Source: Rosa chinensis (taxonomy: Eukaryota > Streptophyta > Magnoliopsida > Rosales > Rosaceae). Taken from it: DNA of 64,000 nt. Both the position numbers and the translations under genes were made by a program. Below, piece by piece: positions 11,951 to 61,307 of this stretch; position 1 is the first letter of the stretch, and each line of letters starts with the position of its first letter. Location of the stretch: positions 82,856,347 to 82,920,346 of the forward strand of contig NC_037089.1 of NCBI RefSeq assembly GCF_002994745.2, written 5' to 3'. The notes under the pieces were generated by a model. That model did not search any database. It saw nothing but the letters and a program-made list of their open reading frames with translations, and was not told the origin of the DNA.

Positions 11951-13987
11951 TGATAGGAGCATTTTAATGCGGTATTTTAATAGTTAATTCCTCACATTTT
12001 GCTTAGTTAATTCCTTAACGAATCGATTTTTAACTCAATTTCTATTTTTTAGGTACATTGGAGTAGATGATGATGAAATGAGCATTTTGGCCTGAGAAAG
12101 TGTGTCTTGGAGAAATTGAGCCAATGAGAAAGCGAGCTAGACAAGAAATGAGGAGTGGCAGACTAACCATCCGAACTTCAAATGAGTTGAAACTTTCCAG
12201 ATTCATTCTAGAAAGCCCAAGGATCATTTCTTATGAAGAATGCCAGAGCAAACTATGAGTGGAAGGCCTTCAAACAATCAGCCCAATTTTCTACAGAAGC
12301 AAAACTGGAAAACTGGACCTGTAAGAGGTCCAGCAGCATTTCCGGCCCAACCACATGGCAATACATTCTGAAATTTTACCACAGTAATCTACATTCATGG
12401 GGGAATATTTGTTATGAAGAAGTCTTGGGCAGAATCTAAACTTTCTGTGGAGATAAAATTGAAGTAAATGAGTAGGAAATCCATCATCATCATCACCCAA
12501 AAACATTCCATGTTTTAGGGTGTAATCATCATGTTTTCTCCATCATTTCTCACACTAATCCACCATCATCATCACCCAAAAACATTCCATGTTTTAGGGT
12601 GTAATCATCATGTTTTCTCCATCATTTCTCACACTAATCCACCATCATCATCACCCAAAAACATTCCATATTTTAGGGTGTAATCATCATGTTTTCTCCA
12701 TCATTACTCACACTAATTTACTCCATCTTTTCCAATTTCACTCTTCTTTCTCTTCCCTATATAAATACATTCTGCTCTCACTCTAAAACATCTTCCTTCA
12801 TCCATCTCATCTTCTTTGTCTCTCCATTTCCTTTCCATTTTTCTCTCCATTATCTAGTTTTAAGTTTCTGCATTTTTAAGCAAAGAGAAGAAGAGAAGAA
12901 GAAGCCATGAAGCCTCCTAGCCGTCATCATCCACCTTGTGCCGTGATAGTGAAGTCTTGCTTTAAAGATTCAAGATCAATGTCTCAAGCTCTTCATCATC
13001 CACTCCCTTCATGGTGTAATTCTATCTTTTTCCTTGTAATTTCTTTTGGTTTTCTTTGTTTAGATTTGTAGAACTATGAATTCTAGTTAACAAATAATGT
13101 TAAGGGCAAAGTTTAAAGCCCGTTTATATGTTTTGAGATAAAGTTGTGATTTCTATATGTTGATTTTTATGTTGCTTTATGATTAATTGAGAATTTTCAG
13201 ATTCATATATTGTGATTCGAGAGTTGCTTATGTGAGTTTGTTTAATTAAATTTGCGTTATAGATAACTTTTGTATTTTAATCTTATGTGGTTGCAAACAC
13301 GTAGGGTTTTGATATGAATGGTGCTAGGTTTAAGAACATGAAATTGACTTTTCGTTTTGTGTAAACTTGAATCAAAGTAGTAAAGGTTTTGTGCAAAGAC
13401 CGAATTTAATTAAAGAGGATTGCAATTAGGTGGACTTTTCCATACTAAGTTGTACACTTGAGTTGATAGCCTTTCTCTATGTGTAATGCGTTAAACATGA
13501 CATGATTGACTAGCTTTCTAGGGTTTGATTGCATGTTTAATAGGATTAATCTAGGTGCTTTCACTTAGATTAATTAGCATTGAAAAGTAAAATATGGGAA
13601 ATTGTTTGCTTTTAACGTTTCACATGATCAACTCCTCTCTCATGACTTGGATGAACAATATTAGGGTTTGAATCAATTTTAATCATATGTTTCGGTTTTT
13701 GATCTTTGTTCTCTCACTCCATTTGTATTTTTATGTTTTTGCATTTTAATTATTTTGTTAACTTAGTTTTATTTTCGAAAAAACCAAAAACAAATTCCCC
13801 CTTTTTCGTAAATAATGTTTATACTTGTGAATATCTTTGTGAATATTATACTTTGTTTTAATTTTAATTGTTTAATTGTTTGACAATGACAGATGTACCC
13901 TCAATCCCCGGAATAGAACGATCCCTACTTGCTTATACTACTATGATATTTTTAGGGTTAAATTATGCACTTGCTTTGAGCGCATCA
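11951..13987 (+). mobile_element. Solo LTR related to the WUS-carrying retrotransposon
   Basis: The 2,037-bp segment starts TGATAGGAGCATTTTAATGC and ends GCGCATCA, with a perfect 5-bp duplication CAAAG on both sides (11946-11950 and 13988-13992). It is clearly similar over its length to the LTRs at 28668-30784 and 35733-37847 but differs by a 79-bp triplication and several indels. A TATATAAATA promoter box is at 12758-12767. There is no internal region, so it is the remnant of recombination between two LTRs. Confidence 0.92.
12482..12718 (+). repeat. 79-bp tandem triplication within the solo LTR
   Basis: Three copies of a unit containing CATCATCACCCAAAAACATTCC and GGGTGTAATCATCATG, spaced 79 bp apart (the word ACCCAAAAAC occurs at 12495, 12574 and 12653). 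It lies upstream of the LTR TATA box and is not present in this form in the two intact LTRs. Confidence 0.9.
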
Positions 13988-27965: not shown

Positions 27966-28667
27966 TTGTTTGGTAATCAGGGAATATGGCAGATGGAGTC
28001 AGATGTTATTGGGCAGTTGTTTTGTTCTTACTTTGCTAAACTTTTCAGCAAATCTGGTGGACTAAACATGAACAGAGTGTTGGATTGTGTTCCACGGTTA
28101 GTTACTTTACAAATGAATCGGCAGTTGCTACAACCATTTGAAAGAAAAGAGGTGGAATTCACTCTATTCCATATGTCACCTTCAAAATCACTAGGAGATG
28201 ATGGATTATCAGCAATCTTCTTTCAACTGTTTTAGAGCCTGGTTGGAGATGAAGTCTCTGCTATTTGCTTGAATGTCTTGAATGGATCAGCATCAGTCCA
28301 GCCTTTCAACCATACACTGTTGGCTTTGATTCCTAAAGTTTCCTCCCCAACAACTATGGCATATTTTCGCGCAATCAGCCTTTGTAATGTCATCTATAAA
28401 CTGGTGGTCAAGACTTTTGCAAACAGGTTAAAAAAGGTGTGGCCAACTGTTATTAGTTCTACCCAGAGTGCTTTTATTGCACATAGAAATATTTTGGATA
28501 TTGTTATGATTGGCTTTGAGGTGATGCATTTTGTGAAGAAGATGGAGGATGGAAATATGGGGGCAATGGCAATTAAGTTGGATATGGCAAACGCTTATGA
28601 TAGGGTGGAATGGTGCTTTTTGGAGGCAATGATGTTAAGGTTGGGGTTTTATCGCTTATGGGTACAA
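27966..28667 (+). pseudogene. LINE reverse transcriptase, first part
   Basis: Shows a MSPSKSLGDDGLSAIFFQ block (normally KSPGPDG), ALIPKV, FRAISLCNVIYKLVVK and STQSAFI, then KLDMANAYDRVEW with the first catalytic Asp of RT. A TAG at about 28233 interrupts the frame, which then resumes unchanged. It is cut at WVQ by the retrotransposon and continues in the same frame at 37853. Confidence 0.88.
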
Positions 28668-30784
28668 TGATAGGAGCATTTTAATGCGGTATTTTAAATG
28701 TTAATTCCTCACATTTTGCTTAGTTATTCCTTAACGAATCGATTTTTAACTTAATTTCTATTTTTAGGTACATTGGAGTAGATGAAGAAGAAATGAGTGT
28801 TACGTCCATAATTACCTAGAAATGATGGAGAAGAATGAAAATGCACTAAAAAGTCAACCTTGAATATTTTCTTACTCCGGCTAGGAGAATCAGAGCCAAG
28901 CAAGGAAGAAGGAGCGGCCACCTGACCAAATGAACTTGAAATGAGCTGAAACTCTCCAGATCCATTCTAGACACCCAAATGATCATTTCTTATGAAGAGT
29001 GCCAGAGAAAAATATGAGTGGAAGGCCTTCAAACAATCAGCCCAATTTTCTACAGAAGTAAAACCGGAAAACTGGACCTACAAACAATCCAGCAGCATTT
29101 CCGGCCCAACCACATGGCATAAAGCTCTGAAAATTTGTCAGGATGATCTACACTCATAGTGGAACATTTTTTATGAAGAAGTCGAAGGCTCATTCTGAAG
29201 TTTTGATGGAGAAATAATTGAAGGAATAAAGGGGAAGAAACTGACCTGAAAACAGCTCAACACCACATATTCATGTTTCCCACCCATATGAAGAAAGCAT
29301 TTCTTTTTCCTTGGATATATTTTTTCTACCCTAAAAGATCATCATCACTTCCACATTTCTTCACCTTCATGCTTTGTTTTCATCATTACCTCATCTTTTA
29401 CATATTTTACAAACCACTCTCATACTCCACTTTCATTATTTTTCTTCATCTCATCATTTCACTCTTCTTTTTCTTCCCTATTTAAACACCTTCTCCTCTC
29501 ACTCTCAATCACCAATTCCTTCATCCATTCCATCTTCTTTGTCTCTCCATTTCCTTTCCATTTTTCTATACACCAATTCCTTCATCCATTCCATCTTCTT
29601 TGTCTCTCCATTTCCTTTCCATTTTTCTCTCCATTCTCTAGTTTTAAGTTTCTGCATTTTTAAGCAAAGAGAAGAAGAGAAGAAGAAGCCATGAAGTCTC
29701 CTAGCCGTCATCATCCACCTTGTGCCGTGATAGTGAAGTCTTGCTTTAAAGATTCAAGATCAACGTCTCAAGCTCTTCATCATCCACTCCCTTCATGGTG
29801 TAATTCTATCTTTTTCCTTATAATTTCTTTTGGTTTTCTTTGTTTAGATTTGTAGAACTATGAATTCTAGGTAACAAATAATGTTAAGGGCAAAGTTTAA
29901 AGCCCGTTTATATGTTTTGAGATAAAGTTGTGATTTCTACATGTTGATTTTTATGTTGCTTATGTGGGTTTGTTTAATTAAATTTGCATGATAGAAAACT
30001 TTTGTATTTTAATCTTATGTGGTTGCAAACACTTAGGGTTTTGATATAATTGGTGCTAGGTTTAAGAACATGAAATCGACTTTTCGTTTTGTGTAAACTT
30101 GAATCAAAGTAGTAAAGGTTTTGTGCAAAGACCGAATTTAATTAAAGAGGATTGCAATTAGGTGGACTTTTCCATACTAAGTTGTACACTTGAGTTGATA
30201 GCCTTTCTCTATGTCTAATGCGTTGAACATGTCATGATTGACTAGCTTTCTAGGGCTTGATTGCATGTTTGATAGGATTAATCTAGGTGCTTTCGCTTAG
30301 GTTAATTAGCATTGAAAAGTAAAATATGGGAAATCATTTGCTTTCGAATGTTTCACATGATCAACTCCTCTCTCATGACATTTAAAATCAACTATAGGAA
30401 TTGTAATTGGATTTCTTGCATATGGATGTGGTTTTGATCTTTGTTCCTTGCGTTCCACCCCTGTATATATGTTTTTACGTTTTCTTTATTTTATTTATTT
30501 TAATTTTAATTTTAAGAATCCTAATCCCCCCCTTATTTGTGTTTACTTGTATATATTTATTCTTTATTTTATTTTTGTAAATAATACTTTATTATTTTAA
30601 TTCTTTATTTGTTTATACAATTGTATATATTTTTATTCTTTATTTTATTTTTGTAAATAATACTTTTCTTTATTTGTTACACAATTACAGGTGTACCCTC
30701 AATCCCCGGATAGAACGATCCCTATTTACTTATATTACTAACGACATTTCAGGGTTAAATTGCGCGCTTGCTTCAGGCGCATCA
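28668..30784 (+). repeat. 5' LTR of the WUS-carrying element
   Basis: Starts TGATAGGAGC and ends GCGCATCA. A TATTTAAA box at 29479-29486 lies just before a CT-rich stretch and is the likely promoter. Two 59-bp direct repeats with CCAATTCCTTCATCCATTCC follow at about 29510-29630. Compared with the 3' LTR I see three isolated substitutions, two single-base length differences and one cluster of six changes at 29080-29088. Confidence 0.95.
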
Positions 30785-31580
30785 ATTTTTGGCGCCGTTG
30801 CCGGGGATTGAAAAATCACTTGCTAAATTGTGTAATTTATTGTATATATTTGTTGTTTAAAAATTGTTTGAAACTTAGTTTAAATTAACTAGGATATTAT
30901 TTATATTATTGAACACGAATTTTAATTGTAGGTTGTAAATTGAGAGGAATAGGTGAAGTCTCTTTTATTAATATTGGCCTAAACCCCTTACTGGTACCTA
31001 GCTCAGGTCCCTTAAGGTTGAGGGCGGCCTTTATTAACACTTGATGAACTGTCTTCACACTTATGAACTTTCTCATCTTAGTAAGAAAGCCTATGTGAAA
31101 TGGTGTCTAGGAAGGGGACAACGTTCATGACGGGTTTTTGAATCCAGAAGTGCTTGCAAATGGGCATAAACCACTATGTGGGAGTAGCTCATGCCAAAAT
31201 GGATTTTTCCTCTCGTGTTCGTCCTCCCCCACCTGGCCATTTCAGTAAGGTTGCCCAAAAGATTTGAAAGGGAGTTTGTGTCTAGGCGACTATACTTGGG
31301 CCGCACGTCCACTTGATTTACCGCTTGGAATTTGATTCGATATCAATAATGTTTATAATAAAAGAAATACTTGTGAATACTCTATACGTGTAAATTATTT
31401 TGTTGTTTCACACTTTAAACTTGTAAAAATACTTTTCACATTTTATACTCACTTGAGTACTTAACTTGTGTCTTATGTACAATATACTTGTTAATTATAC
31501 TTGTAGTTTGTAATTAATAGTTATACTTGTTTTTATTTTGTATTTCTTTGTTAATTATAGTTACTAACTTTATTTATTGT
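30785..31580 (+). other. 5' untranslated interior of the retrotransposon
   Basis: Begins with the primer-binding site. No gag-like frame follows. The text around 30980-31320 has only short frames and is probably a remnant of leader sequence. Confidence 0.6.
30790..30808 (+). promoter_or_regulatory. Primer-binding site for tRNA-Asp
   Basis: TGGCGCCGTTGCCGGGGAT begins five bases after the 5' LTR. It is complementary over 19 bases to the 3' end of plant tRNA-Asp(GUC) including CCA, as I recall that tRNA. This site primes minus-strand DNA synthesis. Confidence 0.9.
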
Positions 31581-31830
31581 AGGTACCGTCTGGCTGCAAG
31601 ACGTAAAAAACAAGCGCTACTTGGGAGGCAACCCAATTCAAAATATAATCAGATTTGCTTTCTCTTTCCCTATTTCTTTTTATTTTTCAATTTTTCTCTA
31701 TTGTTTTTATTTTAGGATTTGTTTTCGTAAATGTCTTCTATCTATGCTTACTTATTTCATTGCATGCTTTTAATTGATTACATTGAAGATAATGCAATAT
31801 TTAAGTGTGGGGGAAGGGATTTATATTTTT
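31581..31830 (+). repeat. Athila-type 3' module, copy 1
   Basis: Contains AAGCGCTACTTGGGAGGCAACCCA (31612-31635 region), then CAGATTTGCTTTCT, CATTGAAGATAATGCA and TTAAGTGTGGGGGAAGGG. A diverged second copy lies at 33730-33980. The two copies bracket the WUS gene and the 176-codon ORF. Confidence 0.75.
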
Positions 31831-31884
31831 GTCTTTCATTTTGAGTCCTATATATATTTATATTTGTCTTTTATTTTTGAGTCC

Positions 31885-31992
31885 TTTATATAAAAAAAAA
31901 ATAAATAAATAAATAATAAAAAAAAAAAAAACTGCATTCATTCAGTCTTATTAAATTCAGCTATTTACAAAAAAAAAAAAAAAAAAAAAATT
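31885..31992 (+). repeat. A-rich simple sequence beside the WUS 3' end
   Basis: Three A-runs, the last of about 23 bases, end ten bases before the WUS stop codon region. In WUS orientation they are T-runs, so they are not a poly(A) tail of a retroposed WUS transcript. Confidence 0.8.
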
Positions 31993-32001
31993 TACTCTAT
32001 A

Positions 32002-32589
32002 CTAAGCTATGTCTGCATTTCCGTAGGAGTTGAGGCTGAGCTCAAGGGAAATGCGAGAGTCACCGCCATAGCCGCTACCTCCCTCGGAAGTAGTCTTCAT
32101 GTTGCCAAAGATGTCCTCACCATGCATGGGGAACAGTGGAAGGGTTTCAATCTCCTGGTGATATTCTCCTCGTTGTTCCATGATCGATCCATCAACACCA
32201 TAGCCGACACGTGACCCAAAGTTTAGATCAATGGATCTACCATCATCAGTAGAACTAGTGGATCCAAAATTGAGATCGAGAGATCCACCAACCGGAACGT
32301 TTCGAAATTCCTTCAACTTCTGCCTCTCACGAGCCTTGAGGTTCTGGAACCAAAAGAAGACGTTTTTGTCCTCGATCTGCCCATACTGTTTTAGATGGAG
32401 GCAGATCTCTTGAATCTGCTCTGGAGTTGGGTACTTAAAACCCTTATCATAGTAAAGGCCCTTGAGGATTCTTAGTTGAGGCGGTGTGGGAGCCCACCGG
32501 TTATTAGTCCCGGCTGCTTGGTTGTTTCCTCCATCCTCGATTTGTTGCTGGGTCTGTTGCTCCATTAGTTGCAGAGTTTGTGGTTCCAT
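32002..32589 (-). CDS. WUS-like: WUSCHEL-like homeobox transcription factor in a retrotransposon
   Basis: An uninterrupted 195-residue frame. Residues 30-95 form a WUS-type homeodomain with the extra Tyr in GLYYDKG and helix 3 [12 protein letters not shown] (80-91). TLPLFPMHG (149-157) is the WUS box and SLELSLN (181-187) a C-terminal EAR motif that recruits TOPLESS-type co-repressors. All three hallmarks are intact. Family members act in the nucleus to keep stem cells undifferentiated. Differences from typical WUS (about 290 residues): it is shorter, with much of the central region missing; helix 3 has Leu where His is usual after WFQN; and DLNFGS occurs twice (105-110, 121-126). The start at 32589 is chosen because the homologous protein begins there; an in-frame ATG at 32790 lies upstream of the TATA box. 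It stands antisense to the retrotransposon. No intron is visible. Expression is unknown. Confidence 0.92.
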
Positions 32590-32699
32590 GTTGATGAAGA
32601 AAGGATTTGAGTTTCGAAAGAAAGGCTGAAGGGTTGAGAGAGAAAGACTGGAACTAGGAAGAATTTTCTTTTGGAGTGAACAGTCGCTCAGAATGCACC

Positions 32700-32707
32700 T
32701 ATTTATA
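32700..32707 (-). promoter_or_regulatory. TATA box of the WUS-like gene
   Basis: The minus strand reads CTATAAATAGG, 111 bases upstream of the chosen ATG. That spacing leaves a leader of about 80 bases, normal for a plant gene. It implies the WUS copy kept its core promoter when it entered the retrotransposon. Confidence 0.75.
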
Positions 32708-32813
32708 GAACGAGTGAGCAGATCTCCACCGTTGGATCGACGATCTCTGAGATTAAATCTACGCGTTGGATTAAAGTCACCCGAAAACACGGAAAAGCTG
32801 TTGGCTCGTGAAG

Positions 32814-33010
32814 GACACGTGGGGGAACCAAACTGATCTCGAGGAGCTGTGACAGATAAGCTACAGCCGAAAGCAGGTTTAATTGCCGTGAATCAAGGAA
32901 AAGAAAGGACGCGTGGGGGAATCAAACGAATCTCGAGGATCCGTGACAGACAAGCTATAGCCGAAAGCATGCCATAAATCCAGGAAAAGAAAGGAATATT
33001 TACACGTGGG
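32814..33010 (-). promoter_or_regulatory. Duplicated G-box-containing upstream block
   Basis: A block of about 65 bp beginning GGACACGTGGGGGAA (32813) recurs diverged at about 32907 (GGACGCGTGGGGGAA), both followed by ATCTCGAGGA, GTGACAGA and AGCCGAAAGCA. A third short piece, ACACGTGGGGGAG, lies at 33002. Two perfect CACGTG G-boxes occur (32816-32821 and 33003-33008). G-boxes bind bZIP and bHLH factors. The region lies between the divergent WUS gene and the 176-codon ORF. Confidence 0.65.
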
Positions 33011-33192
33011 GGAGTTTCTTGGGCCGTGAACTATCATAACTCTTCTCCTTCCCGGAGAAGCTTTGTTAAAACCGTATGCTTGTTGAGATTTCTAAACCTA
33101 TTTTGTGCTTCATATATACATCTTTTTTTGTCTCCTCCAGATTTTACTAAGGTTTGTCTAAGCGTGCAGTTTCAAATTCCTTCTACTTCCTC

Positions 33193-33723
33193 ATGGCTCG
33201 AACCAAGGTTACCCCTCGCAGGGGCGTCAATCAACGCCGTGTTCTCTCTTTGGAAGAAGAAGGTCGTCAAGCGGCCACTAGAGCTGGGCTTACTCGTCCA
33301 TGGGACCATCGTCCTATCCGTGAGCGTACCCGCAGTCCCCCTCCTCTGCCTCGTCGCTCTCCCAGACTGCATCCCGGAGAGTCTTCTTCCTCACCAGCTG
33401 CTCGTGCTCCTCGGCCTATGGCCACCCTGGAAAGCTTGTCGGATTTGATTGATGATTTGCGTTCCTCTCTCCGCGATGGTATTATGGTGACAGATTGGAG
33501 AGTCAATTGCATGATCGATTACATCTCTGAGATGAACTGCTCTTTGATCCGCTGTCACACTGCAATAAACAAGCTTGCTCAGGAAGTCAATAACTTGCAG
33601 AGTTATCCTCCTGGGTTTCCTCGCAAGGACGCTACTGCATCACAACATGAGGACCCACCTCCGAAGGCTGAAACCAGCAAGAGGGCTGCCACTCGCCCGC
33701 ACACCGCTCCTCCAAAGGAGTAA
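33193..33723 (+). CDS. 176-residue ORF of unknown function in the retrotransposon
   Basis: An open frame starting MARTKVTPRRG (an ATG 39 bases upstream is also in frame) and ending at TAA 33721-33723, right before the second Athila-type module. The N-terminal third is basic, the middle is rich in Ser, Pro and Arg, and the C-terminal half (residues about 90-150) has regular Leu/Ile spacing that could form helices or a short coiled coil. I do not recognise it. Its position before the 3' module suggests a remnant of a retrotransposon ORF. A run of Ts ending in TCCTCCAG at 33122-33140 could be a splice acceptor in its leader. Confidence 0.5.
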   Translation: MARTKVTPRRGVNQRRVLSLEEEGRQAATRAGLTRPWDHRPIRERTRSPPPLPRRSPRLHPGESSSSPAARAPRPMATLESLSDLIDDLRSSLRDGIMVTDWRVNCMIDYISEMNCSLIRCHTAINKLAQEVNNLQSYPPGFPRKDATASQHEDPPPKAETSKRAATRPHTAPPKE

Positions 33724-33729
33724 ATGGAG

Positions 33730-33985
33730 GTACAAGTCTAGGCTGAAAGACTTTAAACATTAAGCGCTGCATGGGAGGCAACCCATTTCAACCGTATCTG
33801 TGGAGGAGCCATCAAACGCAGATTTGCTTTCTTGAACTCTTCCTTCTATTTTATTTTCATGAATTTTAAGTTGTTTTAGGTTTCGTTGTGTTAACTTTCT
33901 CTTCTATGCTTGATTCATGCTTTGCATGCTTTATATTTGTTATACATTGAGGACAATGCATGAATTAAGTATGGGGGACGGATTA
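33730..33985 (+). repeat. Athila-type 3' module, copy 2
   Basis: Contains GGTACAAGTCTAGGCTG, AAGCGCTGCATGGGAGGCAA, CAGATTTGCTTTCT, CATTGAGGACAATGCA and TTAAGTATGGGGGACGG, in the same order as copy 1 at 31581-31830. Confidence 0.75.
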
Positions 33986-35716
33986 TTGCTTTATTGTGTT
34001 TTTAGTAGTTAGTAAAAAAAAAAAAATGTTTATAACAAAAGAAAATGTTGTGATACACTAAGGTATATTGGATTAAACATAGTCTTGAAAAAGGGTAGCT
34101 GTTTCAGTCCCATTGCACATCGAGACTCCCTGTTCCCGTACCTAAGTGTTGAAATTAAATTAAATTGTAAAAAAAAAAAAAAAAAAAAATGTTGGTTTTA
34201 GAGTGTTTTTGTGTGTTTGAGTCTTAGGATGCTCCTAACGTCTAGGATGAACATGTCTCTAAATTCATGGCTGAAGGTTTTCACAATCGAAATAGGACTT
34301 AATTGAATTCTGTGGTTAATCAACATTGTGATGCTTGTATGAAGATTTGAGATTGGATTGTAACTTGGTTCATTAAGCATGCTAGGATTAAGTCTGATTC
34401 ATTTGACCCAAAGTGAGTTTTTGTGCTAAAATACTTTCTTTTCGAGTGCTTATTGATAATTCTAGAATTTCGTGGCTGTATTTGCAAAACCTCATCATTC
34501 TTTGGAAATCCAATGATCATGTGCCATAGATTTTAATGGACTAGAGAGTACTAGAACTCGGCTGTTGTGACTGTCAAAACTTGTATGCCATAATATGCAC
34601 TGATCCTGGATAGGATAGAAGGCATTAGGGTAACCACCATAGCCAAACAAGCATGTGTCCCCAATTGTGCCCGTCGTGGGACTCCTTAGAATGAACCCAT
34701 TTGAGCCTACGTTGAAAACTTTTGTTTCATCACCCTCACTACCCTACCATGAGCTTAGTACAGGATATCTCTACCCTTGTCTTAAGGACTTAGTAGAGCA
34801 TGACATAGTATGTAGGGGTGCCGATGAAAGACAAGTGTGGGGTGGGGAAAATCCAAGAAGAAAAAAAAAAAAAAAAAAATTTTTGCCTTGAAAAAAAGAA
34901 AGAAAGAAAGAAAGAAAAGCGGCAAAAGAGAAGAAAAATTGAAAAGAAAACTCTTGGGAAAATGTTGAAGTGTGGTTTTGGACTTGCAAATTTGTAGAAG
35001 GCTCAAAGTTGAAAATTATGCCTTTGTCCATTCCCATGTTGGTTAGAGTGAAGGTTTGGCCCAAAACAATGATATTTGGTCTACAAAAACAATGACATAA
35101 GGTGGTCCTTATATGCTCTGCTAGGTCCTTAGGATTTTTTTTTGTATCCTTAATCTTCATTTCGAAAACCCTAGCTTAGCCCCATTACAACCTGTTTTAA
35201 GTGCTGACTTGATCCTTGAGATGGGCAGTCTTTGGTTAGTGGAGTCAGTTATGCAGTCGAGCTTATGGTTTAGGTCCATTTGTGCACTTAGTCATTTCAT
35301 GAGGTCTTTAAAAATTCTTCACAAAATGTGTTTATTGATGAAATATGCAAGCTGTTTGTTGCCTTACAATTTGTTCTCTTGCATATACTTGAGTGTGAAG
35401 CTTTTAAGCATAGCCATTTCTGAGAGAAAAATCGAGAGTATGCCCTGTAAGTTTGGATTGGACTTGTTCGAAACATGCTATCATTCACTGTATAACTTAA
35501 GTTCTCCATATCTTGCTTAGTCATATGAATGTCACAGGTTTATTAACCATAGAATTATCTTTGTGATTTTGATTAAGTGTTTAACGTGAAAGCCATGAGT
35601 TTGGAGTCTCTGAGACAACAGTTAGGAGCAATAGAGTCATTTACTTGCTTTTTGTCAAGTCTTTGTTCTGTTTTGGATTTTTTTTTGTTTTGTTTTGCTA
35701 AGGGACTAGCAAAAGC
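33986..35716 (+). other. 3' untranslated interior of the retrotransposon
   Basis: Non-coding, with several A-runs (34013, 34168, 34861) and an AAAG microsatellite at about 34893-34917. Short frames here have no similarity that I recognise. Confidence 0.6.
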
Positions 35717-35732
35717 TAAGTGTGGGGGAATT
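35717..35732 (+). promoter_or_regulatory. Polypurine tract before the 3' LTR
   Basis: CTAAGTGTGGGGGAATTT directly precedes the 3' LTR start at 35733. A purine-rich AAGTGTGGGGGAA core of this kind primes plus-strand DNA synthesis. The same core also ends module copy 1. Confidence 0.75.
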
Positions 35733-37847
35733 TGATAGGAGCATTTTAATGCGGTATTTTAAATGTTAATTCCTCACATTTTGCTTAGTTATTCCTTAAC
35801 GAATCGATTTTTAACTTAATTTCTATTTTTAGGTACATTGGAGTAGATGAAGAAGAAATGAGTGTTACGTCCATAATTACCTAGAAATGATAGAGAAGAA
35901 TGAAAATGCACTAAAAAGTCAACCTTGAATATTTTCTTACTCCGGCTAGGAGAATCAGAGCCAAGCAAGGAAGAAGGAGCGGCCACATGACCAAATGAAC
36001 TTGAAATGAGCTGAAACTCTCCAGATCCATTCTAGACACCCAAATGATCATTTCTTATGAAGAGTGCCAGAGAAAAATATGAGTGGAAGGCCTTCAAACA
36101 ATCAGCCCAATTTTCTACAGAAGTAAAACCGGAAAACTGGACCTGTAAGAGGTCCAGCAGCATTTCCGGCCCAACCACATGGTATAAAGCTCTGAAAATT
36201 TGTCAGGATGATCTACACTCATAGTGGAACATTTTTTATGAAGAAGTCGAAGGCTCATTCTGAAGTTTTGATGGAGAAATAATTGAAGGAATAAAGGGGA
36301 AGAAACTGACCTGAAAACAGCTCAACACCACATATTCATGTTTCCCACCCATATGAAGAAAGCATTTCTTTTTCCTTGGATATATTTTTTCTACCCTAAA
36401 AGATCATCATCACTTCCACATTTCTCACCTTCATGCTTTGTTTTCATCATTACCTCATCTTTTACATATTTTACAAACCACTCTCATACTCCACTTTCAT
36501 TATTTTTCTTCATCTCATCATTTCACTCTTCTTTTTCTTCCCTATTTAAACACCTTCTCCTCTCACTCTCAATCACCAATTCCTTCATCCATTCCATCTT
36601 CTTTGTCTCTCCATTTCCTTTCCATTTTTCTATACACCAATTCCTTCATCCATTCCATCTTCTTTGTCTCTCCATTTCCTTTCCATTTTTCTCTCCATTC
36701 TCTAGTTTTAAGTTTCTGCATTTTTAAGCAAAGAGAAGAAGAGAAGAAGAAGCCATGAAGTCTCCTAGCCGTCATCATCCACCTTGTGCCGTGATAGTGA
36801 AGTCTTGCTTTAAAGATTCAAGATCAACGTCTCAAGCTCTTCATCATCCACTCCCTTCATGGTGTAATTCTATCTTTTTCCTTATAATTTCTTTTGGTTT
36901 TCTTTGTTTAGATTTGTAGAACTATGAATTCTAGGTAACAAATAATGTTAAGGGCAAAGTTTAAAGCCCGTTTATATGTTTTGAGATAAAGTTGTGATTT
37001 CTACATGTTGATTTTTATGTTGCTTATGTGGGTTTGTTTAATTAAATTTGCATGATAGAAAACTTTTGTATTTTAATCTTATGTGGTTGCAAACACTTAG
37101 GGTTTTGATATAATTGGTGCTAGGTTTAAGAACATGAAATCGACTTTTCGTTTTGTGTAAACTTGAATCAAAGTAGTAAAGGTTTTGTGCAAAGACCGAA
37201 TTTAATTAAAGAGGATTGCAATTAGGTGGACTTTTCCATACTAAGTTGTACACTTGAGTTGATAGCCTTTCTCTATGTCTAATGCGTTGAACATGTCATG
37301 ATTGACTAGCTTTCTAGGGCTTGATTGCATGTTTGATAGGATTAATCTAGGTGCTTTCGCTTAGGTTAATTAGCATTGAAAAGTAAAATATGGGAAATCA
37401 TTTGCTTTCGAATGTTTCACATGATCAACTCCTCTCTCATGACATTTAAAATCAACTATAGGAATTGTAATTGGATTTCTTGCATATGGATGTGGTTTTG
37501 ATCTTTGTTCCTTGCGTTCCACCCCTGTATATATGTTTTTACGTTTTCTTTATTTTATTTATTTTAATTTTAATTTTAAGAATCCTAATCCCCCCTTATT
37601 TGTGTTTACTTGTATATATTTATTCTTTATTTTATTTTTGTAAATAATACTTTATTATTTTAATTCTTTATTTGTTTATACAATTGTATATATTTTTATT
37701 CTTTATTTTATTTTTGTAAATAATACTTTTCTTTATTTGTTACACAATTACAGGTGTACCCTCAATCCCCGGATAGAACGATCCCTATTTACTTATATTA
37801 CTAACGACATTTCAGGGTTAAATTGCGCGCTTGCTTCAGGCGCATCA
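35733..37847 (+). repeat. 3' LTR of the WUS-carrying element
   Basis: 2,115 bp, TG...CA, with a TATTTAAA box at 36543-36550. Almost identical to the 5' LTR, which points to a recent insertion. At 36145-36153 it reads GTAAGAGGT, as does the solo LTR at 12321-12329, so this is the ancestral state of the cluster that differs in the 5' LTR. Confidence 0.95.
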
Positions 37848-37852
37848 TACAA

Positions 37853-39521
37853 CGTATTATGGATTGCTTGATAACAGTTTCCTTCTCGGTGATATGGAAA
37901 AGGAATCCTCTAGGGTACTTTGTTCCATCACGTGGAATCAAGCAAGGCTGTCCTTTGTCACCATACTTGTTTCTTTTTATGGCAGAAGGCTTCTTAAGGC
38001 TGCTCCAACAGGCAGAGGCTACAACACAGATCTATGGTGTTCGAATTTCAAGGTTCGCACCCTTAATATCTCATTTATTCCATGCTGATGATAGTCTTCT
38101 GTTTTTGGAAGCAAATCAGGCCACCCCACAGGTTATAAAAGATATTCTCTGCATATATGAAGAACTCTCAGGGCAGCAGATAAATTTTCAGAAATTAGCT
38201 TTGTCTTTCAGCCCAAATGTGAGGGAAGAATATCAAGAGTTTCTAAGTGGTTTTCTAGGAATTCCAGTAGTAGCCTGTCATGAGAAATATTTGGGTTTGC
38301 CAACTCTAGCAGGAAGAGGCCAAAGATGTTTGTTTAAGACTATTCGAGACAGGATTTGGTACAAGATAAATGGCTGGAAGGAAAAGCTTCTTTCCGAGGC
38401 GGGTAAAGAGATTCTTCTAAAATCAGTGGTTCAAGCTATTCCATCTTACTCAATGAATGTTTTCCGGATGCCTGTGACTTTGAGCCATGAACTATTGGGT
38501 TTGTCAACCAGGTTTTGGTGGGGAAGGCAGAAAGGTAAGCGTGGTCTTCATTGGCTGCGATGGGATTCTTTATGCAGAAACAAGGTGAAAGGTGGGCTAG
38601 GATTTAAAGATTTTGTTGATTTCAATCAAGCACTTTTGGCTAAATAATGTTGGAGAGTGTTCTCTCTTCCTGATTTGTTTGTCACGAAGGTGTATAAAGG
38701 GCGCTACTATCCCTTTTCCTCTCTTCTATCTGCATCTGTTGGGAGATCAAGCTCACTGATTTGGAGATCTCTCATTTGGAGCAGGGAATTATTTGCTTCT
38801 GGTCTGCGATGGAGGGTGGGTGATCGTAGGTCTATTTTCATCTTTCGTGATGCTTGGATTCCTATTCCATACACATTTCGCATTTACTCCCCACCAAATT
38901 TGCCCTTCAATTCTCTTGTTTCTGAGTTGATTACTGTGGATGGTTATTGGAACATTGAATTAATACATCACAGCTTTTGGTCACGAGAGTTTGAAGCAAT
39001 TCTCTTAATTCCTCTGCTGATAGCTCCTACTCCAGATAGATTGTGTTAACATTACACAAGAAATGGATTATATAAGGTCAAGAGTGGTTATCAATTGGCA
39101 CAAAATTGCAGATTTCGAAAGGAGGGGGGGCGAAGGCAGTTCTAACTCACAAGAAGACCCAGTTTGGAAGTATGTGTGGAATCTGAAAGCTCCAGCTGCT
39201 ACAAAGGTCTTTTTTTGGCGTGCAATCCATGACATCCTGCCTTGTGATTTTAATTTACATCGACGACATCTGTTGTTTTCTCTGGTCTATTCCCGCTGTA
39301 AAATGGGCTATGAAACTACAATACATGCCTTATGGTCTTGCTCTAAAGCCAAAGAAGTTTGGTTGCTCACTTCTTTTCGTACTGCCATGGAAGGGTGGAA
39401 ACATAGCTCTTTTAAAGAACTTTTCAGATTTGGTATTTCTGTTCTTTCTAAATCGGAATTGATCTTTGTCTTAATGTGTTGTCGTCGAATCTGGCAAGCA
39501 CGGAATGAAGAAATTTTCTAG
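37853..39521 (+). pseudogene. LINE reverse transcriptase, second part, and zf-RVT domain
   Basis: Continues the RT in frame after the retrotransposon: GIKQGCPLSPYLF, then HADDSLLFLEA, the catalytic box that is usually FADD or YADD, and the thumb region. A TAA at 38645-38647 is followed by the same frame up to 39049. A frameshift near 39050 leads into the zf-RVT domain, with VWKYVWNLKAPAATKVFFWR, LPCDFNLHRR and a HALWSCSKAKEVW block. Together with the stop in the first part, the LINE is inactive. Confidence 0.88.
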
Positions 39522-54342: not shown

Positions 54343-54920
54343 TCAAGGAGGGCAATCTTGGTTGGGGAGTTGTTCGGCGGTTTGAAGCGTTTTCTTCCGC
54401 TAGTCTTTGCAAGAGCATAATTAGCGTCAGTGCGTTGTCAACCGTTGGTTTTACTGATCAAACGCTTTATACCCTTTCGGGTGGGCCCCTGCTGGGCCCC
54501 CCCAGGGAGTCCCCCACTCCCCGGCGAAGATAGACCTCCGGACGGTCGGTAATTTGTTTGATGAGGGGGAGCTGCACGGAGCAGAGGGTGTTGGGTAGCG
54601 AGCCCAATGTTTAGCACCCAAATGACGAGGGTCACCGTGCCTGATCAGGGCCGTCGTAGACTGGTTGACTAGTCCCCGTGTCCCGTAGGGACGGTCTGAC
54701 GGTAACGCCGCGTGGCGGTCGTTGTCAGTGAGGCGTAGCCTCGGGATTTTCCGTTTGGCGGATATCCCCCAGCTAGATGCAGCAGCGTCCGATAGACGTG
54801 CCTGGCGGTATTTTTGCATGATGAAAAGAAAGGTTCTGCCAGCGGTGTGTGGCGACAGTCACCCCGCCTGCAGGGTAGCCAGGAGGAAGTCCTGCTGGCG
54901 GGGTTTTGTTTCTTGGAAAA
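54343..54920. other. 3' region of the Tat element, no gene
   Basis: GC-rich sequence between the polypurine tract and the 60-bp array, with short frames on both strands and no recognised domain. Confidence 0.5.
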
Positions 54921-55805
54921 TGACAAGGGAGAAGTTCCGGTGGCTGGGTTTGCTCAGCGGAGACTTCGCCTCTTGGAGAGTGACGAGGGAGAAGTTCCGC
55001 TGGCTGGGTTTGCTCAGCGGAGACTTCGTCTCCTGGAAAGTGACAAGGGAGAAGTTCCGCTGGCGGGTTTGCTCAGCGGAGACTTCGCTCCTTGGGAAAA
55101 TGACAAGGGAGAAGTTCCGCTGGCTGGGTTCGCTCAGCGGAGACTTCGTCTCCTGGAAAGTGACAAGGGAGAAGTTCCGCTGGCGGGTTTGCTCAGCGGA
55201 GACTTCGCTCCTTGGAAAAATGACAAGGGAGAAGTTCCGCTGGCTGGGTTTGCTCAGCGGAAACTTCGCCTCTTGGAGAGTGACGAGGGAGAAGTTCCGC
55301 TGGCTGGTTTGCTCAGCGGAGACTTCGCTCCTTGGAAAAATGACAAGGGAGAAGTTCCGCTGGCTGGGTTTGCTCAGCGGAAACTTCGCCTCTTGGAGAG
55401 TGACGAGGGAGAAGTTCCGCTGGCTGGGTTTGCTCAGCGGAGACTTCGTCTCCTGGAAAGTGACCAGGGAGAAGTTCCGCTGGCGGGTTTGCTCAGCGGA
55501 GACTTCGCTCCTTGGAAAAATGACAAGGGAGAAGTTCCGCTGGCGGATTTGCTCAGCAGAGACTTCGCTCCTTGGAAAAATGACAAGGGAGAAGTTCCGC
55601 TGGCGGGTTTGCTCAGCGGAGACTTCGCTCCTTGGAAAAATGACAAGGGAGAAGTTCCGCTGGCGGATTTGCTCAGCGGAGACTTCGCTCCTTGGAAAAA
55701 TGACAAGGGAGAAGTTCCGCTGGCGGGTTTGCTCAGCGGAGACTTCGTCTCCTTGGAAAAATGACAAGGGAGAAGTTCCGCTGGCGGAGTTTTCGAAGTT
55801 GCCCC
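54921..55805. repeat. 60-bp tandem array, about 15 copies
   Basis: Units start TGACAAGGGAGAAGTTCCGC and continue with TTGCTCAGCGGAGACTTCG. The TGACAAGGGA/TGACGAGGGA words occur every 60 bases from 54921 to 55762. Copies differ by a few bases and single-base length shifts. Because 60 is a multiple of three and the unit lacks stops, three long frames stay open across it (two on plus, one on minus), but these are by-products of the repeat. Arrays in the 3' untranslated region are known in Tat/Ogre elements and can seed satellites. Confidence 0.93.
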
Positions 55806-56023
55806 TTCGGTGGTTAATACGTGTCGCGCCCATAGCGGGTTAGCGTGCGTAGGTTTGTCTGCTAAGCCTGTCCGTCTTCTAGCCTTTAATGATAGTAACT
55901 GTGGGTTTCGTAACCGAGATGAAGCCTCGGGCAATCCGGAGAGTGAGTGGAGACGTACGACACGTGTACGGCTAACAAGGGATGTCGGTATGGAGCGGAC
56001 GGCCGAGGACGCGTTGGGGCCGA

Positions 56024-59603: not shown

Positions 59604-61292
59604 CTATTTGTAATAATACCGAAGGTGTTCAGTATTCCAAGGGTGGGCCGACGTGACGCCGTCCTTGTCCATTAAGTAGAAGGTGCCTGGGCTAACGACT
59701 TCCACGATTTTGTACGGGCCCTCCCACGTTGGGCGGAGTTTTGTTGGTGGCGGAATGACTTCCTTCATGACCAAGTCCCCCAATTGGAGGTTCCGGGCTC
59801 TGACTCTGGCGTTGTAAAAACGTGATACCCGTTGCTTGTTTTGTAGATTGTGTAAATGGGCCTCGAGTCTTCTCTCTTCTAGGAGGTCCCTGTCCAAATT
59901 GACGCCGGCGCTGTTGGTCTCTGGGCAGTAGCCTTCGACTCTAGCGGTAGGTTGAGTAACTTCAATGGGTAAGACAGCCTCTGTGCCGAACATCATACAA
60001 AAAGGAGTTTCTCCGGTGGCGGAGGTTGGAGTTGTTCGGATGGCCCACAGGACTTCTGGGAGTTTCTCCGCCCATAAACCCTTGGCGTCGTCGAGCTTCT
60101 TTTTTAACAACTTTTTGATTATCTTGTTTGCCGCTTCGACCTGGCCGTTGGTCTGGGGGTGGGCGACAGATGCAAACCTCAACTTGGTGCCTAAGTCGGT
60201 GGTGAAGGAGATGAGCTCATCATTGTTGAACTGTGTGCCGTTGTCTGTGATGATTGTGTGTGGGACACCGGAGCGGCAATAGATATTCTTCCAAAGGAAG
60301 TGAATTACCTTGGCGGTAGTTATTGCCGTCAATGGCTCTGCCTCTATCCACTTGCTGTTATAATCAATGGCAACAATGATGTATTTGAACTGACCCTTGG
60401 CGGTTTGGAACTTTCCCATCAGGTCAAGGCCCCACGTGGAATGAATCCATGGGCCCACGATGATTGATAGTGGTTCCGCTGGTGCGTGTGGGAGATCTGC
60501 AAACTGTTGGCATTTGTGGCAAGACCTCGAAATCCGCCGGGCGTCATCGCCAAGTGTAGGCCAGAAGTAGCCTTGTCGCATTGTGCGGTTGGTCAGGGAC
60601 CTGGTGCCCGAGTGGTTTCCGCATTCCCCGCCATGGATTTCAGTTAGGACAACCCTTCCCTCCTCTGGGGTTAGACAGCGGAGATTAGGATGGCTGCATC
60701 CCTGGCGGTAGAGCTTGCCGTGCTGGATGTTGTAGCGGGTTGCTCTTCGTTGGAGCTGCCTTGCCTGGACCTTGTCTTCTGGCAACGTTCCGCTGCGCTT
60801 GTATGCAATGATCTCGTCCATCCAGCTGGGGTTGACTTGAACGTTGAAGATTTCCGCCAGGGTTTTTGTAATACTTGGCTTGTCCAGGCATTCCACCCTT
60901 GTATCCGCTGGACTCTGATGTGGTTGGGCGGTTGCCAGTCTGGCCAGTGAATCAGCCTTGGCGTTCTTTTCCCGGGGGATCTGTGTGATTGTATGGAATT
61001 TGAACTTTTTTAGCAATGTTTTGACGTATCCCAAATACGCTGCTAACTGCTGGTCCTTGGTTTGGAAGCTGTCGTTGACCTGGTTGACGACTAGTTGGGA
61101 GTCGCTGAATATGTTGACGCTGTCAGCTCCTGAGTCAATGGCGAGAAGCAGGCCGGCTATGAGCGCCTCGTACTCCGCCATATTGTTTGAAGCTTTGAAG
61201 TTGAACTTTAATGCGTACTCTGCGTTCAGTCCCCCGGGTCCGGTTAAGATGACTCCGGCGCCGCTGGCCTTGGCACAGGCGGAGCCGTCCAC
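59604..61292 (-). CDS. pol: Tat-type pol, C-terminal part: second RNase H and integrase
   Basis: A 562-residue frame from the first Met after a stop. Residues 1-120 are an archaeal-type RNase H with Asp2 (MDGSA), Glu41 (MAEYEAL), Asp64 (SDSQL) and Asp114 (KADSLA), the extra RNase H of the Tat lineage. Integrase follows: the zinc site His220, His227, Cys258, Cys261, then the catalytic Asp290, Asp350 (TDNGTQF) and Glu386, giving DD35E spacing. The C-terminal part holds the GDLVMKEV and GPYKIVEV blocks usual in gypsy integrases. A single TAG (about 61308-61310) separates it from the preceding pol frame without a shift, so the two were one polyprotein. All catalytic residues are intact, but the stop should prevent its synthesis unless it is read through. 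Confidence 0.92.
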   Translation of the reverse strand: MDGSACAKASGAGVILTGPGGLNAEYALKFNFKASNNMAEYEALIAGLLLAIDSGADSVNIFSDSQLVVNQVNDSFQTKDQQLAAYLGYVKTLLKKFKFHTITQIPREKNAKADSLARLATAQPHQSPADTRVECLDKPSITKTLAEIFNVQVNPSWMDEIIAYKRSGTLPEDKVQARQLQRRATRYNIQHGKLYRQGCSHPNLRCLTPEEGRVVLTEIHGGECGNHSGTRSLTNRTMRQGYFWPTLGDDARRISRSCHKCQQFADLPHAPAEPLSIIVGPWIHSTWGLDLMGKFQTAKGQFKYIIVAIDYNSKWIEAEPLTAITTAKVIHFLWKNIYCRSGVPHTIITDNGTQFNNDELISFTTDLGTKLRFASVAHPQTNGQVEAANKIIKKLLKKKLDDAKGLWAEKLPEVLWAIRTTPTSATGETPFCMMFGTEAVLPIEVTQPTARVEGYCPETNSAGVNLDRDLLEERRLEAHLHNLQNKQRVSRFYNARVRARNLQLGDLVMKEVIPPPTKLRPTWEGPYKIVEVVSPGTFYLMDKDGVTSAHPWNTEHLRYYYK

Positions 61293-61307
61293 ATGTAGGT
61301 CCCAATC

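What the first reader, a model, noticed from the sequence alone, without database searches (positions are those of the whole stretch)
31997..33010. Intact WUSCHEL-like gene with its own promoter carried inside a recent LTR retrotransposon
The sequence shows a full WUS set (homeodomain, TLPLFPMHG box, SLELSLN EAR motif) in one unbroken frame, antisense between two almost identical LTRs with a perfect TACAA duplication outside. A TATA box and G-boxes lie upstream of its ATG. The element lacks gag and pol, so the gene is cargo. If the element has several copies, it would be spreading a stem-cell master regulator around the genome, or producing WUS antisense or small RNA from the LTR promoter.
Basis: partly seen in the sequence, partly recalled or inferred. 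Interest (0 to 1): 0.93.

Follow-up and report, generated by a model that had tools for sequence, protein, structure and literature searches.

The report
Retrotransposon carrying a rose WUSCHEL gene
In rose, a jumping element of the retrovirus-like kind carries an open gene derived from WUSCHEL, the plant stem-cell regulator, and has copied it to many, probably hundreds, of places in the genome, which probably explains a large gene-family expansion that had been reported without a cause.

Summary
The host is Rosa chinensis (contig length equals that given for its proteins). Window 28668-37847 is one clean LTR-retrotransposon insertion (LTRs 9 substitutions/2115, TSD TACAA, inside a LINE), with no gag/pol found.

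Antisense inside lies an open 195-aa WUSCHEL-derived homeobox gene, head-to-head with a second ORF (176 aa). I read 25 of the 39 other scored copies: 25 of 25 carry both genes intact in the same order. 24 of 25 measured LTR pairs (window included) differ by 0-9 substitutions; 13 of 26 copies have a perfect TSD, all different. An ORF2-selected sample had intact WUS in 14 of 18.

The donor type, a 3-exon WUS, sits elsewhere (C2:11.71 Mb). The element gene is old (homeodomain dS 0.97, dN 0.15), its homeodomain constrained, and its conserved promoter is not that of WUS. This offers a mechanism for the published 381-member rose WOX family, for which genome duplication was hypothesised.

Not shown: expression, protein function, benefit to the element. 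Against: nearly all rose-only WOX genes were silent in the published rooting data.

The parts
28663..28667 (.). target-site duplication TACAA, left
28668..30784 (+). 5' LTR, 2117 bp, TGATAGG...GCATCA
   Evidence: 99.5% identical to the 3' LTR
30790..30808 (+). primer-binding site TGGCGCCGTTGCCGGGGAT (complementary to the 3' end of tRNA-Asp; tRNA identity recalled)
   Evidence: the searched pattern is found in 18 of the 20 other copies examined
31578..31817 (+). internal non-coding repeat, 69% identical to 33725-33981
32002..32589 (-). WUSCHEL-derived homeobox gene, 195 aa, intronless
   Evidence: intact in 26 of 26 WUS-selected copies (window included) and 14 of 18 ORF2-selected places
32311..32505 (-). 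homeodomain (residues 29-93)
   Evidence: dN/dS estimates among copies 0.07-0.33
32113..32148 (-). WUS box [12 protein letters not shown] (residues 148-159)
32029..32049 (-). EAR-like motif SLELSLN (residues 181-187)
32590..33192 (.). 603-bp divergent intergenic region between the WUS gene and ORF2: TATAAATA 32700-32707(-), CACGTG 32816-32821 and 33003-33008, imperfect ~94-bp tandem repeat 32811-32995
   Evidence: the 431 bp before the ATG have 99.3% median identity over 20 copies (query-selected)
33193..33723 (+). ORF2, 176 aa, basic, no known domain; the two named hits are from R. chinensis, the other four from unnamed contigs
35718..35732 (+). polypurine tract AAGTGTGGGGGAATT
35733..37847 (+). 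3' LTR, 2115 bp
37848..37852 (.). target-site duplication TACAA, right
28236..28667 (+). 5' part of the interrupted LINE reverse-transcriptase frame (continues at 37853-38647)

Best explanation
This is one recent copy of a non-autonomous Ty3/gypsy-type (probably Athila/Tat-like) LTR retrotransposon family of roses. The family has adopted a WUSCHEL-derived homeobox gene as a standing accessory gene. Proposed history: processed (spliced) WUS copies arose in the rose lineage [shown that such copies exist]; one was trimmed and came to lie antisense in the internal region beside a promoter not related to WUS's and an element ORF [inferred]; the element was then copied, with gag/pol supplied in trans [inferred], carrying the gene to many places [shown for 26 copies read over their length and 18 read in part; hundreds indicated by first-look counts and annotated proteins]. 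Throughout, the homeodomain stayed under purifying selection [supported by dN/dS, modest P values]. The protein is most likely made from the element's own conserved TATA/G-box promoter and acts in the nucleus as a WUS-type DNA-binding repressor with WUS box and EAR motif [inferred from domains]. It probably favours the element, for example by acting on stem-cell or germ-line precursor cells or on the element's own G-box-containing divergent promoter [inferred, untested].
For: One clean insertion. 25 of 25 further WUS-selected copies have the WUS gene and ORF2 intact, in the same order and orientation; LTR sequence flanks them on both sides in 24, L013 showing only the 5' LTR in the stretch; L025 has about 1.8 kb extra between PBS and WUS. 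Of 25 measured LTR pairs, window included, 24 have 0-9 substitutions over 602-2,366 aligned bases, L014 has 97 in 1186; 13 of 26 copies have a perfect 5-bp TSD, all different. 18 flanks compared share nothing beyond one 19-base match. Intact WUS in 14 of 18 places chosen by ORF2. Selection among copies: dN/dS 0.47 (0.30-0.76) over 40 copies, homeodomain 0.10 (0.03-0.45). With a neutral spectrum taken from the element's own non-coding DNA: WUS 0.58 (P 0.02, 20 copies), homeodomain 0.24 (P 0.021), ORF2 0.47 (P 0.0016, 26 copies). Versus the host WUS, homeodomain dS 0.97, dN 0.153. TATAAATA in 21 of 21 and at least one CACGTG in 21 of 21 copies examined. Processed full-length WUS copies exist (L053, L054: exons 1, 2 and 3 joined without introns).
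Against: No expression or protein data of mine. The published rooting transcriptome found 359 of 364 rose-only WOX genes almost silent (PMC11405225 section 4.2, read). 4 of 18 ORF2-selected places have a broken WUS. A related short element that lost most of WUS and ORF2 (L055) also sits between close LTRs, so the gene is not needed in cis for copying. The P values are modest and come from about ten tests; linker and C-terminal part are not significant. The read copies are those most similar to the WUS region or to ORF2, so intactness and conservation are biased upward. LTRs show no enrichment of WUS-type binding words. The intended neutral controls L053 and L054 also show low dN/dS against the host WUS, so they were not neutral.
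Confidence: 0.72

Rival explanations
1. Passive passenger: the WUS-derived gene is hitch-hiking cargo with no effect. It is open mainly because the copies are very young, and the constraint dates from an earlier phase when the source gene was functional.
For: Most insertions measured are about 0-0.3 My old by LTR divergence, so few disabling mutations are expected. Nearly all rose-only WOX genes were silent in the published rooting data. A WUS-loss derivative exists. 4 of 18 ORF2-selected places have a broken WUS.
Against: Copies differ by dS about 0.05-0.06 with dN/dS 0.47 and homeodomain 0.07-0.10, and the signal survives a neutral-spectrum control. The promoter is more conserved than the LTRs (99.3% against 85.5%, with query-selection bias). 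ORF2, outside the query, is 98.9%.
Confidence: 0.25
2. Antisense or small-RNA device: sense transcription from the LTR across the antisense WUS gene gives WUS antisense RNA or siRNA that tunes the host WUS gene.
For: The gene is antisense to the LTRs. 40 of 40 intact copies share an exact 38-42 nt stretch with the host WUS coding sequence.
Against: Outside that stretch similarity to the host gene is low (73% over most of exon 1, 80% over the second half of exon 3). Amino-acid-level constraint in the homeodomain points to a protein.
Confidence: 0.08
3. Ordinary host gene-family expansion by whole-genome, segmental or tandem duplication, as hypothesised in the rose WOX paper.
For: Chromosome 2 holds 226 of 381 annotated genes and 25 of the 40 places scored here. 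One tandem trio at 7.0-kb spacing on C7.
Against: Copies lie inside LTR pairs, 13 of 26 with individual TSDs, and 18 compared flanks are unrelated. The paper itself reports 0 collinear genes within the genome.
Confidence: 0.02

Closest known systems
Retroduplicated NLR genes inside non-autonomous LTR retrotransposons of pepper (PMC5664825, passages seen)
   Same: A host gene family multiplied inside LTR elements, about 72% of them without gag or pol; lineage-specific.
   Different: There, 86-123 NLRs per genome lay inside LTR elements. Here one WUS derivative sits antisense at the same place in the WUS-type copies read, with a companion ORF, a shared non-WUS promoter and homeodomain constraint.
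Antisense additional ORFs (aORF-3R) of Grande, RIRE2, Retand, PvRetro13 (PMC7264820, passages seen)
   Same: Antisense gene in the internal region of an LTR element, present in most copies, with its own promoter (shown for Grande gene23); nuclear function suspected.
   Different: Those ORFs lie between pol and the 3' LTR and are stated to have no clear similarity to other proteins (apart from an SMC and a transposase-28 domain), origin unknown. Here no pol was found and the origin is a named host gene.
Bs1 of maize and the rice/sorghum captured genes (PMC7264820 passages; PMC3726574 one passage)
   Same: Host gene sequence captured by an LTR retrotransposon.
   Different: The review says transduced genes are usually in sense and in one or a few copies. 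Here the gene is antisense and highly amplified.
Rose WOX family, clades I-V (PMC11405225; outline, abstract, sections 3.2 and 4 and passages read)
   Same: Same kind of proteins: a published clade IV motif is identical to, and the clade V motifs closely match, the window product.
   Different: The paper lists 381 genes, hypothesises genome duplication, asks for further evidence, and has no word beginning 'transpos' in its main text. The retrotransposon carrier is the new part.
ATHILA elements of roses (PMC12222009, passages seen)
   Same: Ty3/gypsy lineage found in all centromeric regions of R. chinensis, a possible source of gag/pol in trans.
   Different: No word beginning 'wus' or 'homeobox' in that main text; I did not establish a link between the two element families.

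Membership tests
LTR retrotransposon | Two near-identical LTRs with TG...CA ends and a target-site duplication | tested here: met
   9 substitutions/2115, TSD TACAA; empty site
LTR retrotransposon | Primer-binding site after the 5' LTR and polypurine tract before the 3' LTR | tested here: met
LTR retrotransposon (autonomous) | gag and pol coding capacity | tested here: not met
   no such domain in the four internal ORFs scanned; hence filed as non-autonomous
Athila/Tat lineage of Ty3/gypsy | Reverse-transcriptase phylogeny | not testable with these tools
   No RT in the element. Placement rests on the tRNA-Asp type PBS (recalled) and on a gag-C-terminus-like fragment in the related short element L055 (likeness recalled)
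LARD (large retrotransposon derivative) | Very long LTRs (over 4 kb, recalled) and non-coding interior | tested here: not met
   LTR 2.1 kb; the interior has two conserved ORFs
WUS/WOX modern clade | WUS-type homeodomain, WUS box, C-terminal EAR motif | tested here: met
WUS (orthologue of the stem-cell gene) | Full-length three-exon gene, close to WUS of related genera | tested here: not met
   The host gene fitting this is at C2:11.71 Mb; the window gene falls in a 23-row clade (support 100/100) of rose-named and two unnamed-contig proteins
Processed retrogene | Loss of the parental introns | tested here: inconclusive
   Window copy: the missing stretch spans both introns, so a DNA deletion would do as well. 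L053 and L054: joined exons 1-2-3 without introns, met
Processed retrogene | Poly(A) tail at the 3' end in gene orientation | tested here: not met
   The runs next to the stop are A on the + strand, i.e. T in gene orientation
[quoted passage not shown]
   Antisense and in 26 of 26 WUS-selected copies, but there is no pol to place it by, and a sister type without it exists

The most novel reading that the evidence does not exclude
A plant retrotransposon family has domesticated the host's stem-cell master regulator: it encodes its own WUS-type transcription factor, kept by selection at the level of the element, to create or exploit stem-cell and germ-line-precursor states in which it can copy itself. 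This would be a plant counterpart of a retroviral captured regulator gene, and would show that an antisense accessory gene of an LTR element can descend from a named host transcription factor.
Probability: 0.35. Interest if true: 0.96.

Novelty: new variant of a known kind. Interest (0 to 1): 0.88.

Why it matters
It offers a concrete cause for an unexplained 'WOX gene family expansion' in roses; if the copies I read are typical, most of the 381 listed rose WOX genes should be re-annotated as transposon genes and left out of family counts. It gives a traceable host origin for an antisense gene of an LTR element, a class whose origin is described as unknown (PMC7264820). It also makes a sharp question testable: does a retrotransposon gain by carrying a stem-cell transcription factor? 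The 38-42 nt exact stretch shared with the host WUS also matters for reading rose WUS expression, small-RNA and in-situ data, because probes and reads could come from the elements.

Tried and rejected
Nested insertion of WUS into a resident element after landing: rejected, because 25 of 25 other WUS-selected copies have the same arrangement and 18 of 18 ORF2-selected places have at least part of the WUS gene beside ORF2.

Only WUS of the species: rejected, because a three-exon WUS lies at C2:11.71 Mb.

WUS promoter carried along: rejected at the sensitivity of blastn word 7 against 4.4 kb upstream.

Binding of the product to the LTRs: TGAATGAA and TTAATSS counts in the LTRs are near the shuffled level. 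No support; not excluded.

Histone-H3-like start (MARTK) of ORF2 as a mimic: dropped, because 15 of the 21 copies listed read MARTK, 5 read MARTR and 1 MAQTK, and three related proteins start MIRTK or MVRTK.

Processed copies L053 and L054 as a neutral control for dN/dS: failed, both show low ratios, so they seem to stem from constrained lineages. I used the element's own non-coding spectrum instead.

Viral-contig scan with the WUS protein: no relative confirmed. Rfam over 28000-38500 at gathering thresholds: nothing.

The first LTR alignment script picked the wrong 5' LTR start (the solo LTR at 11951) and was redone.

Full report
WHAT IS THERE. The window lies at G000:C2:82856347-82920346 of a 515-Mb assembly whose contig C2 has 88,556,329 bases. 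That is the contig length given for Rosa chinensis proteins, including a RchiOBHm_Chr2 entry, so the host is R. chinensis. Positions 28668-37847 form one LTR retrotransposon: LTRs of 2117 and 2115 bp with 9 substitutions and two one-base gaps (six of the nine within eight bases, so perhaps one conversion event), TGATAGG...GCATCA ends, a perfect TACAA duplication, a PBS and a polypurine tract. At 1.3e-8 (rate used in PMC5664825) or 7e-9 (recalled) per site and year this is about 0.16-0.31 My. The element sits in a LINE; joining the flanks restores a 408-aa open reverse-transcriptase frame whose halves match RVT_1 1-88 and 107-193. Pfam found no gag or pol in the four internal ORFs scanned.

THE GENE. 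On the minus strand, 32002-32589 encodes 195 aa with a WUS-type homeodomain (PF00046, 6.7e-11; WUSCHEL 6ry3, 4.4e-22), a WUS box and an EAR motif. The AlphaFold model is confident only over the homeodomain and its best PDB matches are WUS-HD chains. Head-to-head with it, 603 bp away, lies ORF2 (33193-33723, +, 176 aa), without known domain. Its six listed relatives are two R. chinensis hypothetical proteins and four from unnamed contigs. The space between holds TATAAATA and two G-boxes.

A FAMILY, NOT A SINGLE CASE. In the protein database 64 of the 120 listed clusters are named Rosa (R. chinensis or R. rugosa), standing for 367 member sequences; 45 of the 64 representatives keep homeodomain, WUS box and EAR motif (278 clusters matched in all). 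A tree of 61 proteins puts the window gene in a 23-row clade (support 100/100) of rose-named and two unnamed-contig proteins, apart from the WUS of Fragaria, Argentina, Prunus and Malus; deeper forks are weak. In the genome the WUS-plus-promoter query flagged 682 places and scored 40, near full length at 95-100% identity, window included: 25 on C2, 7 on C7, 5 on C3, 3 on C1. ORF2 flagged 509 and scored 40. The LTR flagged 6300 and scored 40. The flagged numbers are a loose first look, not copy counts. I read 25 of the 39 other WUS places over about 9.7 kb each. In 25 of 25 the WUS gene and ORF2 are intact and in the same order and orientation; LTR sequence flanks them on both sides in 24, L013 showing only the 5' LTR in the stretch; in L025 about 1.8 kb extra lies between PBS and WUS. 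Of 25 measured LTR pairs (window included), 24 have 0-9 substitutions over 602-2,366 bases (L028 the most divergent of these, 9 in 809) and L014 has 97 in 1186. Thirteen of 26 have a perfect 5-bp TSD, all different (boundary shifts up to 6 bases allowed). Eighteen 5' flanks compared share nothing beyond one 19-base match. Copy L018 sits inside the ORF2 of another copy, whose two ORF2 pieces overlap by 5 bases, the TSD length. Three copies on C7 at 7.0-kb spacing look like a tandem LTR-interior-LTR array.

DONOR AND AGE OF THE GENE. The species has its own WUS at C2:11.71 Mb: three exons, two introns of about 84 and 330 bp; its protein is 89%, 96% and 78% identical to Fragaria WUS over the three exon pieces. 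The element gene lacks the end of exon 1, exon 2 and the start of exon 3. The missing stretch spans both introns, so intronlessness alone does not prove an RNA step. Other rose copies (L053 on C2, L054 on C7) do join exons 1, 2 and 3 without introns, so spliced WUS copies have been made; I did not read enough around them to say whether they lie in LTR elements. The homeodomain of the window gene is 44/62 identical to the host's, dS 0.97, dN 0.153: an old branch that stayed constrained. The upstream 603 bp show no similarity to 4.4 kb upstream of the host WUS.

SELECTION. Pairwise dN/dS is 0.47 (bootstrap 0.25-0.85) for 21 copies and 0.47 (0.30-0.76) for 40 copies; the homeodomain gives 0.07 and 0.10 (0.03-0.45); ORF2 0.35 (0.20-0.63, 21 copies). 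Because mutation bias can mimic constraint, I took the mutation spectrum from three non-coding internal segments: WUS 0.58 (P 0.02, the 20 copies of 588 nt), homeodomain 0.24 (P 0.021), or 0.33 (P 0.024) with the 39 of 40 intact copies whose homeodomain block was found, ORF2 0.47 (P 0.0016, 26 copies); linker and C-terminal part not significant. These are modest P values from about ten tests. The copies were chosen by similarity to the WUS region. As a check I took 18 of the 28 places that the ORF2 search scored and the WUS search had not: 14 have a full WUS ORF, three are truncated early and one is shifted near its C-terminus; among those 14 plus the window dN/dS is 0.44 (0.27-0.76), homeodomain 0.16 (0.03-0.89). 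Across 20 copies, median identity to the window is 85.5% for the LTRs, 89-96% for the other interior segments, 97.6% for the WUS coding part, 98.9% for ORF2 and 99.3% for the 431 bp upstream of WUS. The last figure is inflated by the choice of query; ORF2 lay outside the query. TATAAATA is kept in 21 of 21 and a G-box in 21 of 21, the second G-box in 20 of 21.

WHAT SPEAKS AGAINST A FUNCTION. The only expression data I read are published: 359 of 364 rose-only WOX genes were almost silent during rooting (PMC11405225 section 4.2). Among 11 LTR pairs that I picked out by hand, 7 have 6.9-7.3 kb spacing as in the window and 4 have 5.2-5.4 kb (LTRs 91-96% identical to the window's). The one short element that I sampled (L055) keeps only the last about 30 coding bases of WUS and has a gag-C-terminus-like fragment in place of the rest and ORF2 (the gag likeness is my reading), so a loss derivative also spreads. 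LTRs show no excess of WUS-type binding words. My intended neutral controls were not neutral.

HOW IT MOST LIKELY WORKS. Shown: an element in which no gag/pol was found carries the gene; the gene is part of the element in the WUS-type copies read; most of these are very recent; the homeodomain is constrained. Inferred: transposition proteins come from an autonomous relative in trans; the gene is transcribed from its own promoter; the product is a nuclear WUS-type repressor; it benefits the element. The simplest benefit would be action in stem-cell or germ-line-precursor cells or on the G-box-bearing divergent promoter (a solved WUS-HD/G-box complex is among the hits, 6ryi). I put the whole reading at 0.72 and the bold version, a selfish stem-cell regulator, at 0.35.

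AGAINST WHAT IS KNOWN. PMC11405225 reports 381 rose WOX genes, 364 in rose-only clades I-V, 226 on chromosome 2, 170 in R. multiflora and 105 in R. rugosa, no collinear genes within rose, hypothesises genome duplication and asks for further evidence; its main text has no word starting 'transpos'. A clade IV motif is identical to, and the clade V motifs closely match, the window product. I found no paper linking rose WOX genes to retrotransposons in the open-access PMC library (searches; listings only, apart from the papers named here); most subscription papers and bioRxiv are not covered. The review of antisense ORFs in plant LTR elements (PMC7264820, passages) says they have no clear similarity to other proteins and that transduced genes are usually in sense and in few copies; this family departs from both. 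A 2026 review of gene capture (PMC13317346, passages) has no word beginning wus, rosa or homeobox. Pepper NLRs (PMC5664825, passages) are the nearest quantitative parallel. I file it as a new variant of a known kind: a gene-carrying non-autonomous LTR retrotransposon.

Noticed in passing
window 11951-13987: Solo LTR of the same family with TSD CAAAG on both sides, holding three near-identical about 79-bp tandem units at 12478-12717.
   Followed up: partly
L055 (G000:C7:10912100-10913950): Short element type with close LTRs that keeps only the last about 30 coding bases of the WUS gene and has a gag-C-terminus-like fragment in place of the rest and ORF2: a WUS-loss derivative.
   Followed up: partly
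window 32084-32121 (minus strand) against L034: An exact 38-nt stretch (38-42 nt in 40 of 40 intact copies) shared with the host WUS coding sequence although the homeodomain dS is near 1; gene conversion, small-RNA related constraint or chance. Coordinates derived by me from the printed stretch.
   Followed up: no
window 29080-29087 against 36145-36152: Six of the nine LTR differences lie within eight bases (LTR positions 413-420), more like one conversion event than six mutations.
   Followed up: no
L018 (G000:C1:62480661-62490374): This copy is inserted into the ORF2 of another copy in opposite orientation; the two ORF2 pieces (1-202 and 198-531) overlap by 5 bases and a TSD GTGAG was found. 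The family jumps into itself.
   Followed up: no
rose WUS-like proteins P0001-P0035: Variable number (1-4) of [12 protein letters not shown] repeats, seemingly derived from GSISHNFGS of WUS exon 3, and mosaic combinations of N- and C-terminal types that suggest recombination between copies.
   Followed up: partly
window 54905-55792: About 60-bp tandem array inside a 384-aa open frame 54689-55843.
   Followed up: no
window 59604-61310: Minus-strand RNase H-integrase frame of another LTR element.
   Followed up: no
G000:C5 82.33-82.45 Mb and 85.35-85.73 Mb; C2 82.19-82.60 Mb: Clusters of WUS-like matches to Fragaria WUS, some without stops; possible older or local amplifications.
   Followed up: no
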